This document shows, piece by piece, positions 13,844 through 57,533 of a DNA stretch of 64,000 nt. Below the pieces are notes generated by a model. That model was not told the DNA's origin. It worked only from the letters and a program-made list of their open reading frames with translations, and ran no database searches. The stretch's first letter is position 1. Each line of letters begins with the position of its first letter. The DNA comes from Microbacterium sp. Root53. GTDB lineage: Bacteria; Actinomycetota; Actinomycetes; Actinomycetales; Microbacteriaceae. The stretch is taken from positions 1,408 through 65,407 of the forward strand of contig NZ_LMFR01000025.1 in NCBI RefSeq assembly GCF_001426925.1, written 5' to 3'. A program made the translations under genes and the position numbers.

Positions 13844-14710
13844 ATGTCATACCCCGCCCATCGTCCCGTCGACGCGACCCGGCCCCTGGAGGGGCGCACG
13901 ATCCTGATGTCCGGCGGCAGCCGCGGCATCGGCCTGGCGATCGCGATCCGGGCGGCGCGCGACGGCGCCAACATCGCGCTGCTCGCGAAGACCGACACCC
14001 CGCATCCGAAGCTCGAGGGCACGATACACACGGCCGCGGAGTGGATCCGCGAGGCCGGCGGCCGCGCGCTGCCGATCGTGGGCGACGTGCGCGACGACGA
14101 CGCGATCGCACATGCGGTGCTCGCCACCGTGGGGGAGTTCGGCGGCATCGACGCGGTGGTGAACAACGCCAGCGTGATCGATCTGTCCGGCACCGAGGCG
14201 CTCTCGCCCAAGAAGTACGACCTGATGCAGGACGTCAACGTGCGCGGCACGTTCATGCTCAGCCGCGCGGCCATCCCGGTGCTGCGGGAGAGCCCGAACC
14301 CGCACATCCTGTCGCTCGCGCCGCCGCTCAACGTCACGCCGAGGTGGCTCGGCGCCCACCCCGGCTACTCGCTCGCCAAGTTCGGGATGACCATGGCCAC
14401 GCTCGGGATCGCCGCCGAGCTCGCCGGTGACGGGATCGCCGCGAACACGCTCTGGCCGCGCACGCTGATCGCGACCGCGGCGGTGCAGAACGTGATCGGC
14501 GGCGACCGGCTGATGGCCCGCAGCCGCACGCCCGAGATCTACGCGGATGCGGCGCACCTCGTGCTGTCGCGGCCCGCCTCCGAGCGCAGCGGCCAGACCC
14601 TGATCGTCGAGGACGTGCTCGCCGAGGCCGGCGTGACCGACCTGTCGGGCTACGCGGCCGTGCCGGGAACGCCCGACGAGGAGCTGTACCCGGACGTGTT
14701 CCTCGACTGA
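13844..14710 (+). CDS. Short-chain dehydrogenase, HSDL2-like
   Basis: A 288-residue SDR. The NAD(P)-binding motif is SGGSRGIG (near residue 25), followed by NNAS (near 107) and catalytic Tyr-x3-Lys in GYSLAKFG (near 185). The insert LLAKTDTPHPKLEGTI after the second strand is characteristic of the HSDL2 branch, thought to act in fatty acid or branched-chain acyl metabolism. The ribosome site AGGAGGAG precedes ATG 13844. It lies 150 bp before prpD and may act with it, though a repeat element separates them. Confidence 0.87.
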   Translation: MSYPAHRPVDATRPLEGRTILMSGGSRGIGLAIAIRAARDGANIALLAKTDTPHPKLEGTIHTAAEWIREAGGRALPIVGDVRDDDAIAHAVLATVGEFGGIDAVVNNASVIDLSGTEALSPKKYDLMQDVNVRGTFMLSRAAIPVLRESPNPHILSLAPPLNVTPRWLGAHPGYSLAKFGMTMATLGIAAELAGDGIAANTLWPRTLIATAAVQNVIGGDRLMARSRTPEIYADAAHLVLSRPASERSGQTLIVEDVLAEAGVTDLSGYAAVPGTPDEELYPDVFLD

Positions 14711-14723
14711 CCGATGGGGCGAG

Positions 14724-14782
14724 GCTTCGACTCGCTTCGCTCGCTCAGTCCGTTTCGACTCGCTTCGCTCGCTCAACGACCA
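14724..14782. repeat. Dispersed repeat copy R2, tandem double unit
   Basis: Two nearly identical units follow each other, CTTCGACTCGCTTCGCTCGC and CGTTTCGACTCGCTTCGC, and the second ends CAACGACC. This is the same family as 147-188, 44273-44417 and 49993-50092. Confidence 0.8.
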
Positions 14783-14860
14783 CGAGAGAACGACCGTCCC
14801 CACCTCCCTGAAGAAATAGACTCACCGCAGGCCACAAGCCCCCACCCCGGAAGGACCCCG

Positions 14861-16387
14861 ATGACCGTCGTCCACGCCGTCCGCACCTATCGCAGCGACG
14901 AGAACCTCGCCCGCGAGGACCAGCTCGCCTGGAAGATCGCCCAGGTCGCGGCCGACCCGGTCGAGGTCGAGGCCGACGTCGCCGACATGGTGATCAACCG
15001 CGTGATCGACAACGCGGCGGTCGCGGCCGCCTCGCTCACGCGCGCCCCCGTCGTCTCGGCGCGCGCGCAGGCGCTCGACCACCCGGTCTCGCGCGGCGGA
15101 TCCGGCGCCACGGTGTTCGGCTGCGCGCTCGACGCGCACACCAGCCCCGAGTGGGCCGCGTGGGCGAACGGCGTCGCGGTGCGCGAGCTGGACTACCACG
15201 ACACGTTCCTCGCCGCGGAGTACTCCCACCCCGGCGACAACATCCCGGCGGTCACGGCCGTCGCGCAGCACGTCGGCGCCGACGGCCGCGCGCTGCTGCG
15301 CGGCATCGCGACCGGCTACGAGATCCAGATGGACCTCGTGCGCGCGATCAGCCTGCACCGCCACAAGATCGACCACGTGGCGCACCTCGGCCCGAGCGCC
15401 GCGGCCGGCATCGGCACGCTCCTCGGCCTGGAGCCCGAGGTGATCTATCAGGCGGTGTCGCAGGCGCTGCACACCACGACCGCGACGCGGCAGAGCCGCA
15501 AGGGCGAGATCTCGACGTGGAAGGCCCACGCCCCGGCGTTCGCCGGGAAGATGGCGGTCGAGGCGGTGGACCGCGCGATGCGCGGCCAGACCAGCCCGTC
15601 GCCGATCTACGAGGGCGAGGACGGCGTGATCGCCTGGCTGCTCGGCGGCCCCGAGGCCCGCTACGAGGTGCCGCTGCCCGCCGCCGGCGAGCCCAAGCGC
15701 GCCATCCTGGACTCGTACACGAAGGAGCACTCGGCCGAGTACCAGGCGCAGGCCTGGATCGACCTGGCCCGCCGCCTCGGCGCCGAGCGGCCCGAGCTGC
15801 GCGACCCCGCGAACGTCGAGAGCATCGTGCTGCACACGAGCCACCACACGCACTACGTGATCGGCTCCGGCGCGAACGACCCGCAGAAGTACGACCCGAA
15901 CGCGTCGCGCGAGACGCTCGACCACTCGATCCCGTACATCTTCGCGGTCGCGTTGCAGGACGGCGCGTGGCACCACGTCGACTCGTACGCGCCCGAGCGC
16001 GCCGGCCGCACCGACACCGTGGCGCTCTGGCACAAGGTGACGACGGCCGAGGACCCGGAGTGGACGCGCCGCTACCACTCCGAGGACCCCGACGAGAAGG
16101 CGTTCGGCGGCCGCGCCGAGATCACCCTGACCGACGGGACCCGCATCGTCGAGGAGATCGCGGTGGCCGACGCCCACCCGCTGGGCGCGCACCCGTTCGC
16201 GCGCGAGGACTACGTGCGCAAGTTCCGCGTGCTGGCCGAGCCCGTGCTCGAGGCCGCGGAGATCGAGCGGTTCCTCGACCTCGCGCAGCGCCTGCCCGAG
16301 CTCACGGCCGAGGAGGTCGCGGCGCTCACGATCGTCGCGAAGCCCGGCCTGCTCGAGGCGATCCCGGCGCCGCGCGGCCTGTTCTGA
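14861..16387 (+). CDS. prpD: 2-methylcitrate dehydratase (MmgE/PrpD family)
   Basis: A 508-residue MmgE/PrpD protein that would dehydrate 2-methylcitrate to 2-methyl-cis-aconitate in the cytoplasm. Recognisable blocks are [16 protein letters not shown] near the N-terminus, [30 protein letters not shown] and [19 protein letters not shown]. The length is normal. ATG 14861 has GGAAGGA 6 bp upstream; the frame extends to 14714, but that part encodes only the dispersed repeat. prpB starts 15 bp downstream and prpC follows, so the complete methylcitrate branch is present. No prp regulator of the usual kind is adjacent. Confidence 0.93.
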
Positions 16388-16402
16388 CCGAAAGGCGTCC
16401 CG

Positions 16403-17302
16403 ATGCTCTACTCCCAGGTCCCGGCCCACGAGAAGCGCCGCCTGTTCCGCGAACGGCTCGACTCGGGCGACCTGCTCCGGTTCCCCGGAGCGTTCAACCC
16501 GCTCTCGGCGCGGCTGATCGCGCAGAAGGGCTTCGAGGGCGTCTACATCTCGGGCGCCGTGCTGTCGGCCGATCTCGGCCTTCCCGACATCGGCCTCACG
16601 ACGCTCACCGAGGTCGCGGCGCGCGCCCAGCAGATCGCGCGGATGACCGACCTGCCCGCGATCGTCGACGCCGACACGGGCTTCGGAGAGCCCATGAACG
16701 TCGCCCGCACCGTCCAGACGCTCGAGGACGCGGGGCTGGCGGGCCTGCACATCGAGGACCAGGTCAACCCGAAGCGGTGCGGCCACCTGGACGGCAAGCA
16801 GGTGGTCGACGAGGGCACGGCGCTGCAGCGCATCCGGGCCGCGGCCGACGCGCGGCGCGACCCGAACCTGCTGATCATGGCGCGCACCGACATCCGCGCG
16901 GTCGAGGGTCTCGACGCGGCGGTCGATCGCGCCAAGGCGCTGGTCGACGCCGGCGCCGACGCGATCTTCCCCGAGGCCATGGCGGACCTCGCCGAGTTCG
17001 AGGCGGTCGCGAAGGCCGTGGATGTGCCGATCCTGGCCAACATGACCGAGTTCGGCAAGAGCGACCTGTTCACGGTCGACCAGCTGCGCGACGCGGGCGT
17101 GCGGATCGTGATCTGGCCCGTCTCGCTGCTGCGCCTCGCGATGGGGGCGGCCGAGCGCGGGCTCGACGAGCTGATCGGCGAGGGCCGCCTCACGGGCAAG
17201 CTGGGCGAGATGCAGCATCGCGCCGACCTCTACGACCTGATCGACTACTCCGGCTACAGCCGGTTCGACCAGGGCGTCTTCGACTTCACCATCGACCGCT
17301 GA
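16403..17302 (+). CDS. prpB: Methylisocitrate lyase
   Basis: A 299-residue isocitrate lyase/PEP mutase superfamily enzyme that cleaves 2-methylisocitrate to pyruvate and succinate. It shows GVYISGAVLSADLGLPDIG, the Mg-binding DADTGFGEP, and the signature PKRCGH with the catalytic Cys (about residue 130). MARTDIRAVEG and NMTEFGKS are further family blocks. ATG 16403 has GAAAGG upstream and is 15 bp from the prpD stop. Confidence 0.95.
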   Translation: MLYSQVPAHEKRRLFRERLDSGDLLRFPGAFNPLSARLIAQKGFEGVYISGAVLSADLGLPDIGLTTLTEVAARAQQIARMTDLPAIVDADTGFGEPMNVARTVQTLEDAGLAGLHIEDQVNPKRCGHLDGKQVVDEGTALQRIRAAADARRDPNLLIMARTDIRAVEGLDAAVDRAKALVDAGADAIFPEAMADLAEFEAVAKAVDVPILANMTEFGKSDLFTVDQLRDAGVRIVIWPVSLLRLAMGAAERGLDELIGEGRLTGKLGEMQHRADLYDLIDYSGYSRFDQGVFDFTIDR

Positions 17303-17353
17303 TCGGCGGTCGGGCAGGATCGGCCACAAGCCGCACGTCGCGAAGGAGCACGC

Positions 17354-18541
17354 ATGCCGGAGGAGATCCGCAAGGGACTGGCCGGGGTCGTGGTCGACAC
17401 GACCGCGATCTCGAAGGTCAACCCCGAGACCAACAGCCTTCTGTACCGCGGCTACCCGGTGCAGGAGCTCGCCGCGACCCAGCCGTTCGAGGCGGTCGCG
17501 CACCTGCTGTGGCACGGGGAGCTGCCGGATGACGCGCAGCTCGCCGAGCTGCGCGAGACCGAGCGCGCGCACCGTGCCCTCGCCCCGGAGGTGAAGGCCG
17601 CGATCGACCTCATGCCGGTGGAGGCGCATCCGATGGACGAGGTGCGCACGGCCGTCAGCGTGATCGGCGCGATCGAGACCGCCGGCATCGACAACGTGCT
17701 CGACGCGGTCGGCACGCCCGAGCAGAACCTCGAGCGCAGCGTCCGCCTGTTCGCGCAGCTGCCGGCGATCGTCGCGTACGGCCAGCGCCGCCGCCGCGGC
17801 CAGGAGCCCGTCCCGCCGCGCGACGACCTCGACTACTCGGCCAACTTCCTCTGGATGACGTTCGGCGAGGAGGCGCATGAGGTCGTGGTCGACGCGTTCA
17901 ATCGGTCGATGATCCTGTACGCCGAGCACTCGTTCAACGCCTCGACCTTCACGGCGCGCGTGATCACCTCGACCCTCAGCGACCTGTATTCGGCGGTCGT
18001 CGGCGCGATCGGGGCGCTCAAGGGGCCGCTGCACGGCGGCGCGAACGAGGCCGTCATGCACATCCTCGACGAGATCGGCGACGCCGCGCACGTCGTGCCG
18101 TGGCTCGACGCGGCCCTCGCCGAGAAGCGCAAGATCATGGGCTTCGGGCACCGTGTGTACAAGCGCGGCGACTCGCGCGTGCCCACCATGAAGGCCGCGC
18201 TCGACACGCTCGTCGAGCACTACGACCGCCCCGACCTCGCCGAGCTGTACGACACGCTCGAGCGCGAGTTCGTGGGCCGCAAGGGCATCTACCCGAACCT
18301 GGACTACCCGTCGGGCCCCGCGTACAGCCTGATCGGGTTCGACACGCTCACGTTCACGCCGCTGTTCGTGGCGTCGCGCGTGACCGGATGGACCGCGCAC
18401 GTCATGGAGCAGCTCTCGTCGAACGCGCTCATCCGCCCGCTGTCGGCGTACGGTGGGCCCGACGAGCGGCACATCCCCGGCTACGTGCCCGACGCCGCGC
18501 ACGACGAGACGATCGACCGGCCGGAGGAGGCCGCGGGCTGA
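17354..18541 (+). CDS. prpC: 2-methylcitrate synthase / citrate synthase
   Basis: A 395-residue citrate synthase-type enzyme condensing propionyl-CoA with oxaloacetate. It contains LYRGYPVQELA at the N-terminus, GPLHGGANEAVM with the first catalytic His (about residue 227), GFGHRVYK with the second His (about 268) and FVASRVTGW. The small monomer length and position after prpD and prpB favour methylcitrate synthase, although such enzymes usually also use acetyl-CoA. GAAGGAG precedes ATG 17354. The Nudix gene begins two bases after its stop. Confidence 0.93.
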   Translation: MPEEIRKGLAGVVVDTTAISKVNPETNSLLYRGYPVQELAATQPFEAVAHLLWHGELPDDAQLAELRETERAHRALAPEVKAAIDLMPVEAHPMDEVRTAVSVIGAIETAGIDNVLDAVGTPEQNLERSVRLFAQLPAIVAYGQRRRRGQEPVPPRDDLDYSANFLWMTFGEEAHEVVVDAFNRSMILYAEHSFNASTFTARVITSTLSDLYSAVVGAIGALKGPLHGGANEAVMHILDEIGDAAHVVPWLDAALAEKRKIMGFGHRVYKRGDSRVPTMKAALDTLVEHYDRPDLAELYDTLEREFVGRKGIYPNLDYPSGPAYSLIGFDTLTFTPLFVASRVTGWTAHVMEQLSSNALIRPLSAYGGPDERHIPGYVPDAAHDETIDRPEEAAG

Positions 18542-18542
18542 C

Positions 18543-19004
18543 ATGCCGGTCCTCAGCGCGGGGATCCTGCTGCACCGGGCGTCGCCCGGTGGCGTCGAGG
18601 TGTTCATCGCGCACATGGGCGGGCCGTTCTGGGCGCGCCGCGTCGAGGGCGCCTGGTCGATCCCGAAGGGCGAGTGCGACCCGGCGACCGAGGAGCCGCT
18701 CGCGGCCGCGCGCCGCGAGTTCGTGGAGGAGCTGGGCGTCGACCCGCCTCGGGGAGACGTGGCGGATCTCGGCGAGTTCGCGTACGCGTCGGGCAAGCGC
18801 ATCCGCGTGTTCGCGCTCGACGGCGCCGGGTGGGAGCCGGGCCCGCTGTCGTTCGGCACGTTCGCGCTCGAGTGGCCGCCGCGATCCGGGCGCATGCAGG
18901 AGTTCCCCGAGGTGGACGAGGCCCGCTGGGTCGCCGTCGGCGCGGCGCGCACGCTGCTCGTGAAGGGGCAGCGCCCGGTGCTCGACGCGCTCGCGCGCGC
19001 CTGA
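18543..19004 (+). CDS. NUDIX hydrolase
   Basis: A 153-residue Nudix protein. The Nudix box GX5EX7REUXEEXGU is intact, running from GECDPATEEPLAAA through RREFVEELGVD (about residues 41-65). The flanking AGILLHR and GAWSIPKGE are typical of the small MutT-like group that hydrolyses nucleoside diphosphates linked to another moiety. The substrate is not predictable. ATG 18543 starts one base after the prpC stop, so it is probably co-transcribed with prp. Its last codons and stop are part of a 26-bp sequence repeated beyond the Fic gene. Confidence 0.9.
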   Translation: MPVLSAGILLHRASPGGVEVFIAHMGGPFWARRVEGAWSIPKGECDPATEEPLAAARREFVEELGVDPPRGDVADLGEFAYASGKRIRVFALDGAGWEPGPLSFGTFALEWPPRSGRMQEFPEVDEARWVAVGAARTLLVKGQRPVLDALARA

Positions 19005-19014
19005 CCCGCGGGCG
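18989..19014. repeat. 26-bp direct repeat, left copy (Nudix 3' end)
   Basis: The copy covers the last four codons and stop of the Nudix gene plus following bases. It is identical to 20400-20425. The two copies enclose the Fic gene, as expected for an insertion that duplicated or recreated its target. Confidence 0.9.
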
Positions 19015-19046
19015 GTCGGGCAGGAGTTGCGCACCACCACCCTTCG

Positions 19047-20195
19047 CTAGAGCTCGATGCCTTCCTTGAGAAGCGGAGGGAGGAACCCCAGTGCGTCCAA
19101 CTGTGCAATGAGGTGAGGGGCGAAGACGTCGCCGAGCAGGGGGACTCGGTAGAACCGTGGGCCCCGTCGGTCTACCTCAAGGAGCCCGCGACTCAGCATG
19201 CCTCGGATCTCCTGGGACCGATGCGAGGCGCTGCCAGGTAACGAGTCCGCGAGGTCGCCGGCCTTGACGACGCCCCTTACCAAGGCCGTTTTCAGCGCTC
19301 CCCTCTCGGCTGCGCTGATCACGCCTCGCTCTTGCATCCGGCCGAGAGTGGGATCGAGCAGCTCATCGAAGAGATAGTCGGCGCTCTGCAGCTTCGTCAG
19401 CCGCTCGAGGTCGGAGTGGATGCCCCGAGCGAAGAACGTGCACCAGGCGACCGTTCCCTCATTGCTCAGCGAGTCGGCCGATTCGAGTGCCGCGTAATAC
19501 TCGTCTCGGTCGTTTCCGAAGACCGCCGTGGGGTTGACCGTCCGAAAGCCGATCGGGCTGACGAACCCGTTCCGTCGGATCATGGCGTAGCTGAGCAGTC
19601 GGGATACGCGCCCGTTGCCGTTTCGGAAGGGGTGAATCCACAAGAAGCGGTGGTGCGCGAGCGCGACATGGATCATCTGCTGCGACGTCGGAACCTCGCG
19701 GTTCGCGAAGTCCAGGAACTCGTCCATCTCCGCCTGGAGAAGCACGTGGCTCGGGGGGATGTGCGATGCGCGACTGATCTGCACGTCGACGTTGCGATAG
19801 CTTCCAGGCCGCTCGTCGCCCTCCCGTGTCAGCTCCTCGACGGTCAGGCGATGGAGTTCCCGAACGAACACATGGGTCAGCGGCTGATCTGGTGGAGTCG
19901 ACTCGATGAAGGCGATGGCGCCGAGGAGGTTCGTGATCTCGCGCTGCTGCTCGGACGCTCCGCCGGTCGTGGCGTTCGCGTCGCGGATGGCATCGAAGAT
20001 CGTCGTCCTGTTGCCTTCGATGCGTGCCGAGATGACGCTCGACATGAGTTGGAACAGCGCGTGCAATTCCCCGAGGAGCTCGGTGCGCGTCGTTCCGTAC
20101 CCCAGGTTCCCTCGTAGACGCTCGAGATCGACGATCAGCTGTACGAGCGGAGAGTCGAAGTCGACGCTCGGCAGTCGGTACTTGCCGGGTGTCAT
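19047..20195 (-). CDS. Fic family protein with N-terminal inhibitory helix (probable AMP transferase)
   Basis: A 382-residue Fic/DOC protein. The active-site loop reads HPFRNGNGR (about residues 188-196); the consensus HPFxDGNGR Asp/Glu is Asn here. An SxxxE(G/N) inhibitory motif, SARIEGN, lies at about 55-61, before the Fic core, which is the class II auto-inhibited arrangement. A winged-helix region (AGDLADSLPGSASHRSQEI) occupies the C-terminal 90 residues. Such proteins usually transfer AMP to a target hydroxyl, and the Asn at the metal-binding position could weaken that. Base composition is visibly less GC-rich than neighbours, with codons such as ATA, TTC/TTG and AGT. It lies between 26-bp direct repeats and is probably acquired. 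ATG 20195 fits a class II N-terminus. Confidence 0.88.
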   Translation of the reverse strand: MTPGKYRLPSVDFDSPLVQLIVDLERLRGNLGYGTTRTELLGELHALFQLMSSVISARIEGNRTTIFDAIRDANATTGGASEQQREITNLLGAIAFIESTPPDQPLTHVFVRELHRLTVEELTREGDERPGSYRNVDVQISRASHIPPSHVLLQAEMDEFLDFANREVPTSQQMIHVALAHHRFLWIHPFRNGNGRVSRLLSYAMIRRNGFVSPIGFRTVNPTAVFGNDRDEYYAALESADSLSNEGTVAWCTFFARGIHSDLERLTKLQSADYLFDELLDPTLGRMQERGVISAAERGALKTALVRGVVKAGDLADSLPGSASHRSQEIRGMLSRGLLEVDRRGPRFYRVPLLGDVFAPHLIAQLDALGFLPPLLKEGIEL

Positions 20196-20214
20196 AGGAC
20201 TACTTTGAGCATAC

Positions 20215-20241
20215 TGCGGAACTAATTGCAATGCTTCCGCA
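20215..20241. promoter_or_regulatory. Inverted repeat TGCGGAA...TTCCGCA upstream of the Fic gene
   Basis: TGCGGAA (20215-20221) and TTCCGCA (20235-20241) are perfect inverted arms 13 bp apart, about 20 bp upstream of the Fic start, inside an AT-rich stretch unlike the rest of the window. The protein's own winged-helix domain makes self-regulation possible, but this is inference. Confidence 0.55.
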
Positions 20242-20369
20242 TAAAGCCCAGATCAACCAATCATAATCCTGTCGCACAGTCGGACATCTATTTCCGTGTG
20301 CGTGAAGTGCTTCTTGCGGATGCCGCTCCATTGAATCCCCCTTGCCCGAAGATGACGGCGAGCGACGGC

Positions 20370-20389
20370 GCGCTCGCGCGCGCCTGACC
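20370..20389. repeat. Partial third copy of the Nudix-end repeat
   Basis: Twenty bases match 18987-19006, then diverge. It lies 11 bp before the complete right copy, so the right boundary of the insert contains a partial plus a full copy. Confidence 0.7.
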
Positions 20390-20399
20390 GCGCGCACCT

Positions 20400-20425
20400 G
20401 CTCGCGCGCGCCTGACCCGCGGGCG
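20400..20425. repeat. 26-bp direct repeat, right copy
   Basis: Identical to 18989-19014, including the bases that encode the Nudix stop codon there. The rlmN promoter lies 25 bp to the right, so this side looks like the undisturbed ancestral junction. Confidence 0.9.
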
Positions 20426-20450
20426 CAGGCGCTTCGCAGGGGCGTCGCTC

Positions 20451-20456
20451 TACGCT
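20451..20456 (+). promoter_or_regulatory. -10 element TACGCT of rlmN
   Basis: It ends 6 bp before ATG 20463, which implies a leaderless rlmN transcript. Confidence 0.55.
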
Positions 20457-20462
20457 GGACGC

Positions 20463-21713
20463 ATGAGCGACGCCCCCATCCGCCCCGCGAACACGGCCGT
20501 GCGCGCCACGGGCGTCCGTCAGGTCCGGCCGCAGACGGAGGGCTGGCAGCAGAAGAAGGACGAGACCGGCCGCCCGCTGCTGCAGTTCGCGAGCCCCAAG
20601 CGCGGCAAGCCGCCCGTGCACCTCGCCGACCTCACGCCCGAGGCCCGCGTCGAGAAGGTGAAGGAGCTCGGCCTGCCCGGCTTCCGCGCCAAGCAGCTGG
20701 CGAAGCACTACTTCCAGCACTGGACGAGCGACCCGGCCGACATGACCGACCTGCCGGCCGCGGGCCGCGAGGAGTTCGTCGCCGGGATGCTGCCGAACCT
20801 GCTCACCGAGGTGCGCCGGCTCGAGACCGACAAGGGCGACACGATCAAGTTCCTGTGGCGCCTGCACGACGGCGCGCTGGTCGAGTCCGTTCTCATGCGC
20901 TATCCCGGCCGCATCACGCTGTGCGTGTCGTCGCAGGCCGGATGCGGCATGAACTGCCCGTTCTGCGCCACCGGCCAGGCGGGGCTGACGCGCAACATGT
21001 CGTCGGCCGAGATCATCGAGCAGATCGTGCGCGCCAACCGCGCGATCGCGAACGACGAGCTCGGGCGCCGCGAGCACGCGGACGAGCGCGTCACCAACAT
21101 CGTGTTCATGGGCATGGGCGAGCCGCTGGCCAACTACGCGCGCGTGATGCACGCCGTGCGGGTCATGGTCGACAAGAAGGACGGGCTCGGGATGAGCGCC
21201 CGCGGCATCACGGTGTCGACCGTGGGCCTGGCCCCGGCCATCCGGAAGCTCTCGGACGAGCAGATCCCCGTGACGTTCGCGCTGTCGCTGCACGCGCCCG
21301 ACGACGAGCTGCGCGACGAGCTGATCCCGGTGAACTCGCGCTGGAAGGTCGACGAGGTGCTGGACGCCGCGCGCGAGTACTTCGACAAGACCGGGCGCCG
21401 CGTCTCGATCGAGTACGCGCTGATCCGCGACATGAACGACCACGCGTGGCGCGCCGACCTGCTCGCCGAGAAGCTCAACGCGCGCGGCCGCGGCTGGGTG
21501 CACGTCAACCCGATCCCGCTGAACCCGACGCCGGGCTCGGTGTGGGACGCGTCGGAGCGCTCGGTGCAGCAGGAGTTCGTGCGCCGCCTCAACGACGCCG
21601 GCGTGCCCACCACGATCCGCGACACCCGCGGCAAGGAGATCGACGGCGCCTGCGGCCAGCTGGTCGCCACGGAGGAGGACCAGGCCGCCGCCGCGGCCGC
21701 CACCACGGCCTGA
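20463..21713 (+). CDS. rlmN: 23S rRNA (adenine-2503-C2)-methyltransferase RlmN
   Basis: A 416-residue radical-SAM enzyme that methylates A2503 of 23S rRNA and often A37 of some tRNAs. The iron-sulfur cluster motif CGMNCPFC is at about residue 160 ([19 protein letters not shown]). GMGEPLANY, the SAM-binding GGE-like motif, and [17 protein letters not shown] are diagnostic. The C-terminus carries the methyl-carrier Cys region, [11 protein letters not shown]. The N-terminal 45 residues are an extension common in actinobacteria. The length is normal. Confidence 0.96.
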
Positions 21714-25520: not shown

Positions 25521-25581
25521 GACTGGTCCCGGGGCCCGAGACTGGTGTCGCCGACACCAGTCTCGTCGCCCGGGACCAGTC
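25521..25581. repeat. 61-bp palindrome E3 (GACTGGTCCCGGG stem)
   Basis: GACTGGTCCCGGG (25521-25533) and CCCGGGACCAGTC (25569-25581) are perfect outer arms; CGAGACTGGTGTCG and CGACACCAGTCTCG are perfect inner arms. It lies between convergent genes. A copy with the same outer arms and the same total length is at 57420-57480. Confidence 0.92.
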
Positions 25582-25658
25582 TCGTTCGGGGGCGCCGACG
25601 CCGCCCGGGGACGACGGAGGGGCCGGGCATCGCGCGCCCGGCGCCTCCGCAGCGGGGA

Positions 25659-43700: not shown

Positions 43701-44718
43701 GGCGATCGTGCAGCGCCAGCCGTTCGGCGGCTGGAAGCGCTCGTCGGTCGGCGCCGGGGCGAAGGCGGGTGGCCCGAACTACCTGATCGGCCTCGGATCG
43801 TGGCGCCCCTCGTCGGGCGGGCCGTCGGGTCGCTCGCTGCACCTGCGCGGGCTCGACACCCGGATCGCAGCCGTGATCGAGGCCGCCCAGCCGTCGCTGA
43901 GCTACGAGGAGTTCGACTGGCTGCGCCGCGCCGCGCTCTCGGATGCCGTCGCCTGGGACCGCGAGTTCGGTCGCGTCAAGGACGTCTCGCGGCTGGGCGT
44001 CGAGCGCAACCTGTTCCGCTACCGGCCCGTGCCGGTCGCCGTGCGGGCCACGGCGGACGCCACGTGGCAGGCGGTGCTGCGCGTCGTCATCGCCGGAGTC
44101 CGCACCGGGGGCGACTTCGTCCTGTCGACCCCGGTGGGGCTCCCGGCGGCGGTGCGCCGCGTGCTCGGCCAGCTCGACGTCTCCGTGCACGTCGAGACCG
44201 ACGACCAGTGGATCGAGCGCATGCGCGGCGTCGCCTCCGAGTCGCCGGTGACCGAAGACGACGTCCATACCCCCCGGTCGTTGAGCGGAGCTGAGCCGGC
44301 CACGTCCCCCCGGTCGTTGAGCGGAGCGGAGCCGGTCCCCTCCCCCCGGTCGTTGAGCGGAGCGAGCGCCAGCGAGCGGAGTCGAAACGGGCTGAGCGAG
44401 CGAAGCGAGCCGAAGCCGGCTCCCGACGAGCTCGAGCCCGGCGAGGGCGAGAGCGCCTCCGACGAGGACATGACCGACCTCCTCTCCGACCGCCCGCGCC
44501 CGTCCCGGGTGCGCCTGGTCGGCTCGCCCGAGTCGGTCGCCCGGCTCCACGCCGCGCTGGCCGAGGCGGTCGCCGGGGACCCGGATCTCGCGATCTACGC
44601 GGGCGAGGTCACCACGGCGGGCCGGATCGAGCTGCTGCCGTTCCTGCGCGAGCAGTCCGTGACGATCACCGCGCACCGCTTCGGCAACCCCGACCGCCTC
44701 AGCGCCGACGTCATCTGA
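40732..44718 (+). CDS. putA: Bifunctional proline dehydrogenase / glutamate-semialdehyde dehydrogenase (PutA)
   Basis: A 1328-residue fusion oxidising proline to glutamate. The FAD-linked proline dehydrogenase half occupies about residues 50-470: KIRLVKGANLPMER, YLRCLDFALRPEH, GVAGHNLFDIAYAW. The aldehyde dehydrogenase half covers about 540-1080: TPPWNFPIAIPAGG, ILTGSWDTAKLF, general base Glu794 in LLAETSGKNA, nucleophile Cys828 in GHAGQKCSAAS. No ribbon-helix-helix DNA-binding domain is present. The C-terminal 240 residues contain a linker (about 1181-1229) encoded by three copies of a dispersed repeat, giving the thrice-repeated PRSLSGAE/A motif. The far C-terminus resumes normal sequence. 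The length is above the usual 1150-1250. Confidence 0.94.
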   Translation: MADVLDPSSGSGAPDPGPPEPAPAGSGDLVADAVALAQRWVSEAAQTETDASARRLAGVLQDPNGLPFTLGFVDGVMRPESLTAAAANLNRIAPLVPDFLPWYLRGAVRAGGAVAPVLPVAVVPAARRILREMVGHLIVDARPEKLGPAIERIRESGARLNLNLLGEAVLGEQEAMRRLAGIHELVRRPDVDYVSVKVSAIASHLSMWAFDETVDLVVERLRPLYLTAADHGTFLNLDMEEYRDLDLTIAVFRRLLEDPDLMDYRAGIVLQAYLPDALPALESLTAWANERVDAGGAPVKIRLVKGANLPMERVDAIMHGWSLATHDSKLDTDASYLRCLDFALRPEHTRGVHVGVAGHNLFDIAYAWLLAGERGVRDDVEFEMLLGMAQAQVAAVSREVGHVLLYVPVVRPDEFDVAVSYLVRRLDEAASGENFLSAAFGMHEDRALFIRERDRFVASVRRAAEPTLPTGPNRAQDRAEAQATNADAAERADEDLTQAVLDIARGSGSPALGDEEIDDPTVEFRGLGDDWVETAVFARRESARAEGAPGFRNAPDSDPALPANRAWAREILARIPGSTAGDATIAAARVTDAEALEDLVARVRAAGEDWGRRPAAERGEVLRRAARALEARRGELIEVAASETGKVFAEADTEVSEAVDFANYYAATARELDRVPGAVFEPSRLTVVTPPWNFPIAIPAGGVLAALAAGSGVVFKPAHQARRCAAVVAEALWDAGVPRDVLALVHLSEGDRGSGDLGRRLIGHEAVDRVILTGSWDTAKLFRGWRPDLPLLAETSGKNAIVVTPSADLDLAVADLVKSAFGHAGQKCSAASLAILVGPVARSKRFARQLVDATRSLRVGPPSDPLSEIGPVIEEPTGKLEWALTTLDEGERWLVQPHRVRDTGWEGEGRYWTPGIRTGVQPGSRFHREEFFGPVLGIMHAPTLARAIELQNAVDYGLTAGLHTQDPHELALWLETVEAGNLYVNRGITGAIVQRQPFGGWKRSSVGAGAKAGGPNYLIGLGSWRPSSGGPSGRSLHLRGLDTRIAAVIEAAQPSLSYEEFDWLRRAALSDAVAWDREFGRVKDVSRLGVERNLFRYRPVPVAVRATADATWQAVLRVVIAGVRTGGDFVLSTPVGLPAAVRRVLGQLDVSVHVETDDQWIERMRGVASESPVTEDDVHTPRSLSGAEPATSPRSLSGAEPVPSPRSLSGASASERSRNGLSERSEPKPAPDELEPGEGESASDEDMTDLLSDRPRPSRVRLVGSPESVARLHAALAEAVAGDPDLAIYAGEVTTAGRIELLPFLREQSVTITAHRFGNPDRLSADVI
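44273..44417. repeat. Dispersed repeat cluster R3 inside putA
   Basis: Three units each begin CCCCGGTCGTTGAGCGGAGC, at about 44273, 44309 and 44345. The third continues through GCGGAGTCGAAACGGGCTG and GAGCGAAGCGAGCC. The cluster keeps the putA reading frame open. It is the same family as 147-188, 14724-14782 and 49993-50092. Confidence 0.9.
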
Positions 44719-49992: not shown

Positions 49993-50092
49993 GTCGTTTC
50001 GACTCCGGCTCGTTCCTCGCCTCCGCTCAACGACCGGGGTCCGGAGCCGCCGGTCGTTGAGCGGAGCGACGAAGGAGCGGAGACGAAACGGC
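49993..50092. repeat. Dispersed repeat R4 as an inverted pair
   Basis: One unit runs TCGTTTCGACTCC to CCGCTCAACGACC; the next is in opposite orientation, CCGGTCGTTGAGCGGAGC to GGAGACGAAACG. They face each other between convergent genes and could form a long hairpin that ends both transcripts. Confidence 0.85.
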
Positions 50093-57419: not shown

Positions 57420-57480
57420 GACTGGTCCCGGGAGGCGAGACTGGCGTCGGGACGACCAGTCTCGTCGCCCGGGACCAGTC
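57420..57480. repeat. 61-bp palindrome E4 (GACTGGTCCCGGG stem)
   Basis: Outer arms 57420-57432 and 57468-57480 are identical to those of E3 (25521-25581), at the same spacing. The inner stem has changed by a small deletion/bulge (CGAGACTG...CAGTCTCG retained). It follows the protease gene. Confidence 0.92.
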
Positions 57481-57533
57481 TCGTGGCCCGGGCCAGGCGG
57501 CGGGGCCCTGGCCGGGCGGCGCGGGCCCGACCG

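What the first reader, a model, noticed from the sequence alone, without database searches (positions are those of the whole stretch)
18989..20425. Fic gene inserted at the 3' end of a Nudix gene, bounded by perfect 26-bp direct repeats
The 26 bases covering the end and stop codon of the Nudix gene recur exactly at 20400-20425, with a further 20-bp partial copy at 20370-20389. Between them lies a single Fic gene with lower GC and an AT-rich promoter region. A chance match of this length is very unlikely. It suggests a small mobile or recombinable unit that restores the host gene end, with no integrase or transposase inside. The mechanism (target duplication or homologous exchange) is unknown.
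Basis: seen in the sequence. Interest (0 to 1): 0.78.

Follow-up and report, generated by a model that had tools for sequence, protein, structure and literature searches.

The report
Imported Fic gene with duplicated junction
A single foreign toxin-like Fic gene, carrying its own control region, sits between two housekeeping genes, and the end of the neighbouring gene is present again on its far side, which looks like a scar of how the gene was inserted.

Summary
The 26-bp repeat is exact (18989-19014, 20400-20425), with a 21-bp partial copy at 20369-20389. At up to 2 mismatches the 26-mer occurs twice in this genome and in none of the 365 other genus genomes searched.

Between the copies lies one Fic gene (19047-20195, minus strand). 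It resembles CccR, a Fic-HTH protein reported to repress its own promoter. The gene is patchy (20 of 366 genus genomes) and sits at different loci. At one, acetyltransferase-menC, four relatives without fic have the two neighbours side by side. Acquisition is well supported.

"A recombinable unit bounded by repeats" is only partly supported. Two of 28 examined fic loci have long flanking repeats, of unrelated sequence, and no near relative with an empty nudix-rlmN site is held. The repeats are best read as a scar of this integration event (host recombination or end-joining; Ku is encoded), not as ends used by a recombinase.

Further find: many fic genes carry an operator-like array upstream: GCAARTARTC-like direct repeats 22-23 bp apart with a 65-66 bp gap. 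Its strict form is absent from 457 kb of non-fic DNA. Self-repression through it is inferred, not tested.

The parts
18543..19004 (+). Nudix hydrolase gene, intact, last gene after prpD-prpB-prpC
   Evidence: PF00293 E 6.5e-12; prp genes by NCBIfam
18989..19014 (+). left copy of the 26-bp direct repeat (nudix end, stop and 10 bases)
   Evidence: exact match; genus search
19015..19046 (+). possible remnant of the rlmN upstream promoter region, between the left repeat and the fic stop codon
   Evidence: resembles the GCACCAGC-N4-TCGCAGG block before rlmN in relatives. Weak: best score reached by 9 of 500 shuffles and 50 of 1561 window stretches; mean score by 4 of 500 and 12 of 1561 (29 of 1561 on the other strand)
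19047..20195 (-). fic gene, 382 aa: class II-type motif SARIEGN, HPFRNGNGRVSR, C-terminal winged helix
20198..20207 (-). operator-like site 4 (CAAAGTAGTC, weak)
20220..20229 (-). operator-like site 3 (GCAATTAGTT); contains the only strict-motif match in the window
20286..20295 (-). operator-like site 2 (GGAAATAGAT), 66 bp from site 3
20308..20317 (-). operator-like site 1 (GCAAGAAGCA, weak), 22 bp from site 2
20369..20389 (+). middle, 21-bp partial copy of the nudix end
20400..20425 (+). right copy of the 26-bp direct repeat, joined to the rlmN promoter region
20463..21713 (+). rlmN
   Evidence: TIGR00048, 331.8 bits against cut-off 290
13844..14710 (+). SDR oxidoreductase gene found upstream of rlmN in 8 of 18 relatives' neighbourhoods; everything from here to rlmN varies between species

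Best explanation
This is a horizontally acquired single-gene unit: a Fic-winged-helix gene plus its own promoter with an operator-like array (about 19047-20317). It landed between the Nudix gene and rlmN. The second nudix end on the far side is a by-product of how this copy was integrated. Either host recombination with homology on one side only left a truncated second nudix end, or a staggered break was filled in and closed by Ku-dependent end joining, duplicating the target. The unit has no recombinase and needs none. The Fic protein most likely holds its own expression low by binding the array through its C-terminal winged helix, and when released or activated it AMPylates a cell target, plausibly as an anti-phage or stress toxin. 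Shown: the repeats and their uniqueness, the patchy distribution, fic-free relatives at another locus, the array, the fold, Ku. Inferred: the route of integration, self-repression, the toxin or defence role.
For: Repeats exact and confined to this genome in the genus. fic in 20 of 366 genus genomes and in 10 of 398 family genomes drawn, this one included. Nearest proteins come from other genomes (65% in Labedella populi and in G578, which hold the same sequence; 59% in G317 and G747). At the acetyltransferase-menC locus three genomes carry fic between the two genes, and four of five fic-free loci have the neighbours side by side, 21 to 163 bp apart. Array: pair distances 22 (20 pairs), 23 (12), 65 (15), 87 (12), 88 (13), 110 (7) against at most 0.16 in shuffles; the strict motif occurs 23 times in 8,680 upstream bp, 0 times in 42,000 downstream bp, 31,136 gene-body bp and 457,298 bp of 76 non-fic loci. 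Winged helix in the model (mean pLDDT 91, pTM 0.88) and 7XUX as best fold match, TM 0.84, 37% identity. Ku present, E 1.1e-52.
Against: No near relative with the empty nudix-rlmN site is held, so insertion here rests on the repeat and on other loci. The right copy lacks the roughly 27 bases that follow the left copy up to CTTCG, so it is not a clean target duplication. In G317 the two copies differ mostly at synonymous positions, as if each had once been the end of a separate working gene, which fits recombination between relatives better than duplication. The strict operator motif is missing in 9 of 28 fic loci, and the motif was derived from these same regions. The window's array has only one strict site. 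The rlmN-promoter remnant is weak.
Confidence: 0.58

Rival explanations
1. The 26-bp repeats are attachment sites of a small integrative element that used a site-specific recombinase at the 3' end of the Nudix gene; the recombinase gene has been lost.
For: Direct repeats at the 3' end of a gene that restore the gene are the usual mark of such elements (recalled). G317 also has fic between two copies of a gene end plus terminator.
Against: No recombinase seen in the interval. The repeated sequence differs entirely between G000 and G317, and 26 of 28 fic loci have no repeats above the control level. The 26-mer bounds nothing else in 366 genomes.
Confidence: 0.13
2. The nudix end was first duplicated at this site by slippage or unequal exchange, as the 28-bp-period second and third copies suggest, and fic came in later between copies already there.
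For: Copies 2 and 3 form a short tandem (18 bp, period 28), so this GC-rich stretch does duplicate locally.
Against: The two 26-bp copies lie exactly at the two borders of the foreign segment, and copy 1 is followed by sequence that copy 3 lacks. The fic-free relatives with nudix before rlmN show no second copy, though they are distant (nudix about 65% identical).
Confidence: 0.17
3. A larger donor segment (prpDBC, nudix and fic together) replaced part of an older SDR-nudix-rlmN locus; the right-hand copy is the remaining end of the resident Nudix gene.
For: The whole stretch from the SDR gene to rlmN is variable: about 60 bp in G119, 0.8 kb in G118 and G021, 7.5 kb in G022, 5.75 kb here, and SDR-nudix-rlmN in G092 and G089. 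In G317 the two repeat copies look like ends of two diverged genes.
Against: Here the copies are identical over 26 bp including 10 non-coding bases, so donor and resident would have had to be very close. fic moves without prp or nudix at the other loci looked at in detail.
Confidence: 0.12

Closest known systems
CccR (Fic-HTH effector and autorepressor, Y. pseudotuberculosis; PDB 7XUX)
   Same: Full-length sequence match (E 5.1e-75, query 10-373 on chain 13-378) and best fold match (TM 0.84, 37% identity); Fic domain plus C-terminal HTH. CccR represses its own promoter (passages of PMC9755527).
   Different: CccR binds palindromes near the -35 and -10 boxes; here the sites are direct repeats in helical phase (22-23 bp) with a 65-66 bp gap. 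Secretion and a cell target are not testable here. That 7XUX is CccR is my inference: the code occurs once in that paper (passage not displayed) and both have 380 residues.
SoFic single-gene defence system
   Same: PADLOC SoFic model matches residues 44-350 (E 3.7e-41); class II Fic acting alone (passages of PMC12249575).
   Different: NCBIfam SoFic equivalog scores 28 bits against a cut-off of 550. No defence activity tested. SO_4266 (3EQX) is a much weaker fold match, TM about 0.6.
Integrative elements that use the 3' end of a gene
   Same: Direct repeat made of a gene end; host gene restored; foreign, lower-GC content.
   Different: One gene only, no recombinase seen, repeats not shared by other copies of the cargo.
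Target duplication by a transposon
   Same: Insert flanked by direct repeats of target sequence.
   Different: 26 bp or more is longer than usual transposon duplications (recalled), and no transposase was seen.

Membership tests
Fic/Fido proteins, class II | Catalytic motif HPFxxGNGRxxR | tested here: met
   HPFRNGNGRVSR at 188-199; H188, P189, F190, N192-R196, R199 invariant in 28 homologues; Pfam Fic above cut-off. Motif definition recalled.
Fic/Fido proteins, class II | N-terminal inhibitory motif (S/T)xxxE(G/N) | tested here: met
   SARIEGN at 56-62, invariant in 28 homologues. Inhibition itself not tested; definition recalled.
CccR-like Fic-HTH autorepressors | C-terminal helix-turn-helix DNA-binding domain | tested here: met
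   Helices 295-307, 312-315, 323-335 and a short hairpin in the model; full-length fold match to 7XUX.
CccR-like Fic-HTH autorepressors | Palindromic operator in its own promoter | tested here: not met
   The sites found are direct repeats in one orientation; the first scan found reverse-orientation sites in only 2 of 28 upstream regions, L105 and L110. No search for other palindromes was made.
CccR-like Fic-HTH autorepressors | Binding to and repression of its own promoter | not testable with these tools
   Needs gel shift and reporter assays.
SoFic defence system | Curated family score | tested here: not met
   NCBIfam NF046030 28 bits, cut-off 550; PADLOC model, without a stated cut-off, E 3.7e-41.
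SoFic defence system | Protection against phage | not testable with these tools
   None.
Site-specific integrative element | Integrase gene inside the repeats | tested here: not met
   No such frame seen among those of 80 aa or more between the repeats; other frames not scanned against a library.
Site-specific integrative element | Same end sequence at other copies of the element | tested here: not met
   26-mer at up to 2 mismatches in 0 of 365 other genus genomes; 26 of 28 fic loci without repeats above control.
Insertion by acquisition | Empty site in near relatives | tested here: inconclusive
   Not held for nudix-rlmN; found for another fic locus in four of five fic-free loci.

The most novel reading that the evidence does not exclude
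Fic-winged-helix genes of this family are self-contained, self-silencing single-gene mobile modules. The enzyme is its own repressor and works on a phased direct-repeat operator that travels with it, so the toxin arrives switched off and can settle next to ordinary genes without an antitoxin or a recombinase; fresh arrivals are still framed by duplicated gene ends left by host repair or recombination.
Probability: 0.2. Interest if true: 0.7.

Novelty: new variant of a known kind. Interest (0 to 1): 0.42.

Why it matters
Single-gene toxins that move without an antitoxin or recombinase raise two questions: how they enter a chromosome, and how they stay silent on arrival. The repeat here is a fairly fresh scar that makes the first question testable in one strain collection. 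The operator-like array travelling with the gene makes the second testable with one purified protein and one promoter fragment. The array also gives a DNA signature for finding further members.

Tried and rejected
Chance or low complexity of the repeat: rejected.

Other cargo between copies of the repeat: none found in 366 genus genomes.

Repeats as a constant feature of fic units: rejected, 2 of 28 loci. Dropped before that count: L083 (partial gene) and L084 (the same sequence as L105); both had only 12-13 bp matches.

Phage carriage: no phage record encodes a close relative (17 records, all under 60% identity, none covering 80% of the query). Viral contigs gave 48 relatives, best 43%. The G317 copy lies beside genes like those of phage Min1. 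Its right flank matches Min1 about 6 kb from the holin, so the region looks rearranged, and Min1 gave no empty site.

Operator-like array in viral relatives: eight looked at, no clear 22/65 array.

rlmN promoter remnant to the left of fic: kept only as a weak suggestion.

Wrong name corrected: in notes and scripts I called the gene upstream of fic in G124, G157 and G193 menB, from memory. Searches show a GNAT-type acetyltransferase; only menC was right. The first checkpoint note keeps the wrong name.

Literature. No listed paper describes this array or this locus, but only open papers are held and most lists were cut (77 papers, 8 listed; 17, 6 listed; 32, 15 listed). I saw passages of PMC10628234, PMC12249575 and PMC9755527; no whole paper was read.

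Full report
What is there. The core 18-mer occurs three times in the 2.91-Mb genome, all here. The 26-mer, at up to two mismatches, occurs twice in this genome and in none of the 365 other genomes of the genus. In 57 non-fic control loci the longest exact match between the two 1.5-kb flanks was 15 bp. The repeat is real and not chance.

The locus. In order: an SDR gene (13844-14710), prpD, prpB, prpC, nudix, then fic on the minus strand, then rlmN (names by NCBIfam or Pfam; the PrpD match, 858.7 bits, is below its own cut-off of 950). The SDR-rlmN interval is variable. In 18 neighbourhoods of rlmN taken from relatives, SDR lies upstream of rlmN in 8, at distances from about 60 bp (G119) to 7.5 kb (G022); two of these, G092 and G089, have nudix between them, without prp and without fic. 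In G092 only about 30 bp separate the nudix stop from the rlmN start. These two are the nearest thing to an empty site, but their Nudix proteins are only about 65% identical to this one. The genomes closest at rlmN (91%) have other genes there.

The cargo. The Fic protein (382 aa) has the Fic motif and the class II inhibitory motif, both invariant in an alignment of 28 homologues. Its predicted fold (mean pLDDT 91, pTM 0.88) ends in a winged helix and matches PDB 7XUX best (TM 0.84, 37% identity; sequence E 5.1e-75). The PADLOC SoFic model matches at E 3.7e-41, but the NCBIfam SoFic equivalog is far below its cut-off (28 against 550 bits). Passages of PMC9755527 describe CccR, a Fic protein with a C-terminal HTH that represses its own promoter through palindromes; I infer that 7XUX is its structure. 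In contrast, the authors of PMC10628234 discuss that CbFic2 binds random DNA and may be nonspecific (passages).

Mobility. Relatives of the protein occur in 20 of 366 genus genomes (one of them a partial gene, G018) and in 10 of 398 genomes drawn from the family, this genome included. The best are 65% (Labedella populi, and G578 with the same sequence) and 59% (G317, G747). They sit in different places. In G124, G157 and G193 fic lies between an acetyltransferase gene and menC. Of five fic-free loci with that acetyltransferase gene, four (G100, G030, G263, G181) have menC 40, 163, 93 and 21 bp downstream of it, and in the fifth (G173) menC was not in the fetched stretch. The fic stop lies one base before the menC start. 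Here is a clean gain or loss of the single gene, with no flanking repeats.

The repeats. Among 28 fic loci, two have long exact matches across the gene, 26 bp (this window) and 28 bp (G317); the other 26 have at most 15 bp, the control level. In G317 the repeat is 111 bp long and 86% identical. It consists of the end of a gene like the holin of phage Min1 plus a terminator-like hairpin. The two G317 gene ends encode TLNAGPIGPDTLRRDLR and TLNPGPIGPDTLRRDLR, and most codon differences are silent. That suggests two once-working genes brought together by recombination between relatives, rather than a duplication made at insertion. The short stretch makes this a hint only.

Reading of the repeats. 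Since the repeated sequences are unrelated and mostly absent, they are not ends that belong to the unit. They fit a by-product of the integration event. In this genome the left copy is followed by about 32 bases that faintly resemble the rlmN promoter region of relatives (GCACCAGC-N4-TCGCAGG), the right copy by the working rlmN promoter. The resemblance is weak: its best score is reached by 9 of 500 shuffles and by 50 of 1561 stretches of the window. Ku is encoded, so end joining is available; one-sided homologous recombination is equally open. I could not decide between the two.

The operator-like array. In 28 upstream regions the pair distances pile up at 22 (20 pairs), 23 (12), 65 (15), 87 (12), 88 (13) and 110 (7), against at most 0.16 expected from shuffles. 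The strict motif occurs 23 times in 8,680 upstream bases (19 of 28 loci) and never in 42,000 downstream bases, 31,136 gene-body bases or 457,298 bases of 76 non-fic loci. A 65/66-bp pair occurs in 15 of 28 fic loci and in none of the 76. Caveats: the motif was taken from these same regions, several of them are related by descent, and 9 of 28 lack the strict motif. The window has four sites spaced 22, 66 and 22 bp, one of them strict. Because the array accompanies the gene at different loci, the simplest binder is the Fic protein's own winged helix. That is an inference; CccR is the precedent, though with palindromes.

Verdict. The repeats are better seen as a scar of this event than as borders that a recombinase would use. 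Gene acquisition is the firmest part, the scar reading is likely, and the exact route is open.

Noticed in passing
window 20198-20317 (minus strand) and upstream of fic homologues L064-L082, L105-L113: Phased direct-repeat array before fic genes (22-23 bp steps, 65-66 bp gap), absent in its strict form from 457 kb of non-fic DNA.
   Followed up: yes
window 14711-20462; L087-L104: The interval between the SDR gene and rlmN holds different genes in different species (about 60 bp to 7.5 kb), so it is a hotspot of gene exchange.
   Followed up: partly
L085 6213-6323 and 8013-8123: In G317 a fic homologue sits between two 86%-identical copies of a phage holin gene end plus terminator, in what looks like a rearranged Min1-like prophage remnant.
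   Followed up: partly
window 25556-25585 and 57455-57484: An exact 30-bp repeat 31.9 kb apart; part of a similar sequence also appears in L040.
   Followed up: no
window 44270-44365 and 50050: 36-bp tandem repeat with CCGGTCGTTGAGCGGAGCG, a further copy at 50050.
   Followed up: no
window 14726-14775: A 22-bp repeat (TTCGACTCGCTTCGCTCGCTCA) twice, 28 bp apart, at the left border of the prp block.
   Followed up: no
L078, L079, L082: fic stop codon lies one base before the menC start, so menC may be read from the fic promoter there.
   Followed up: no
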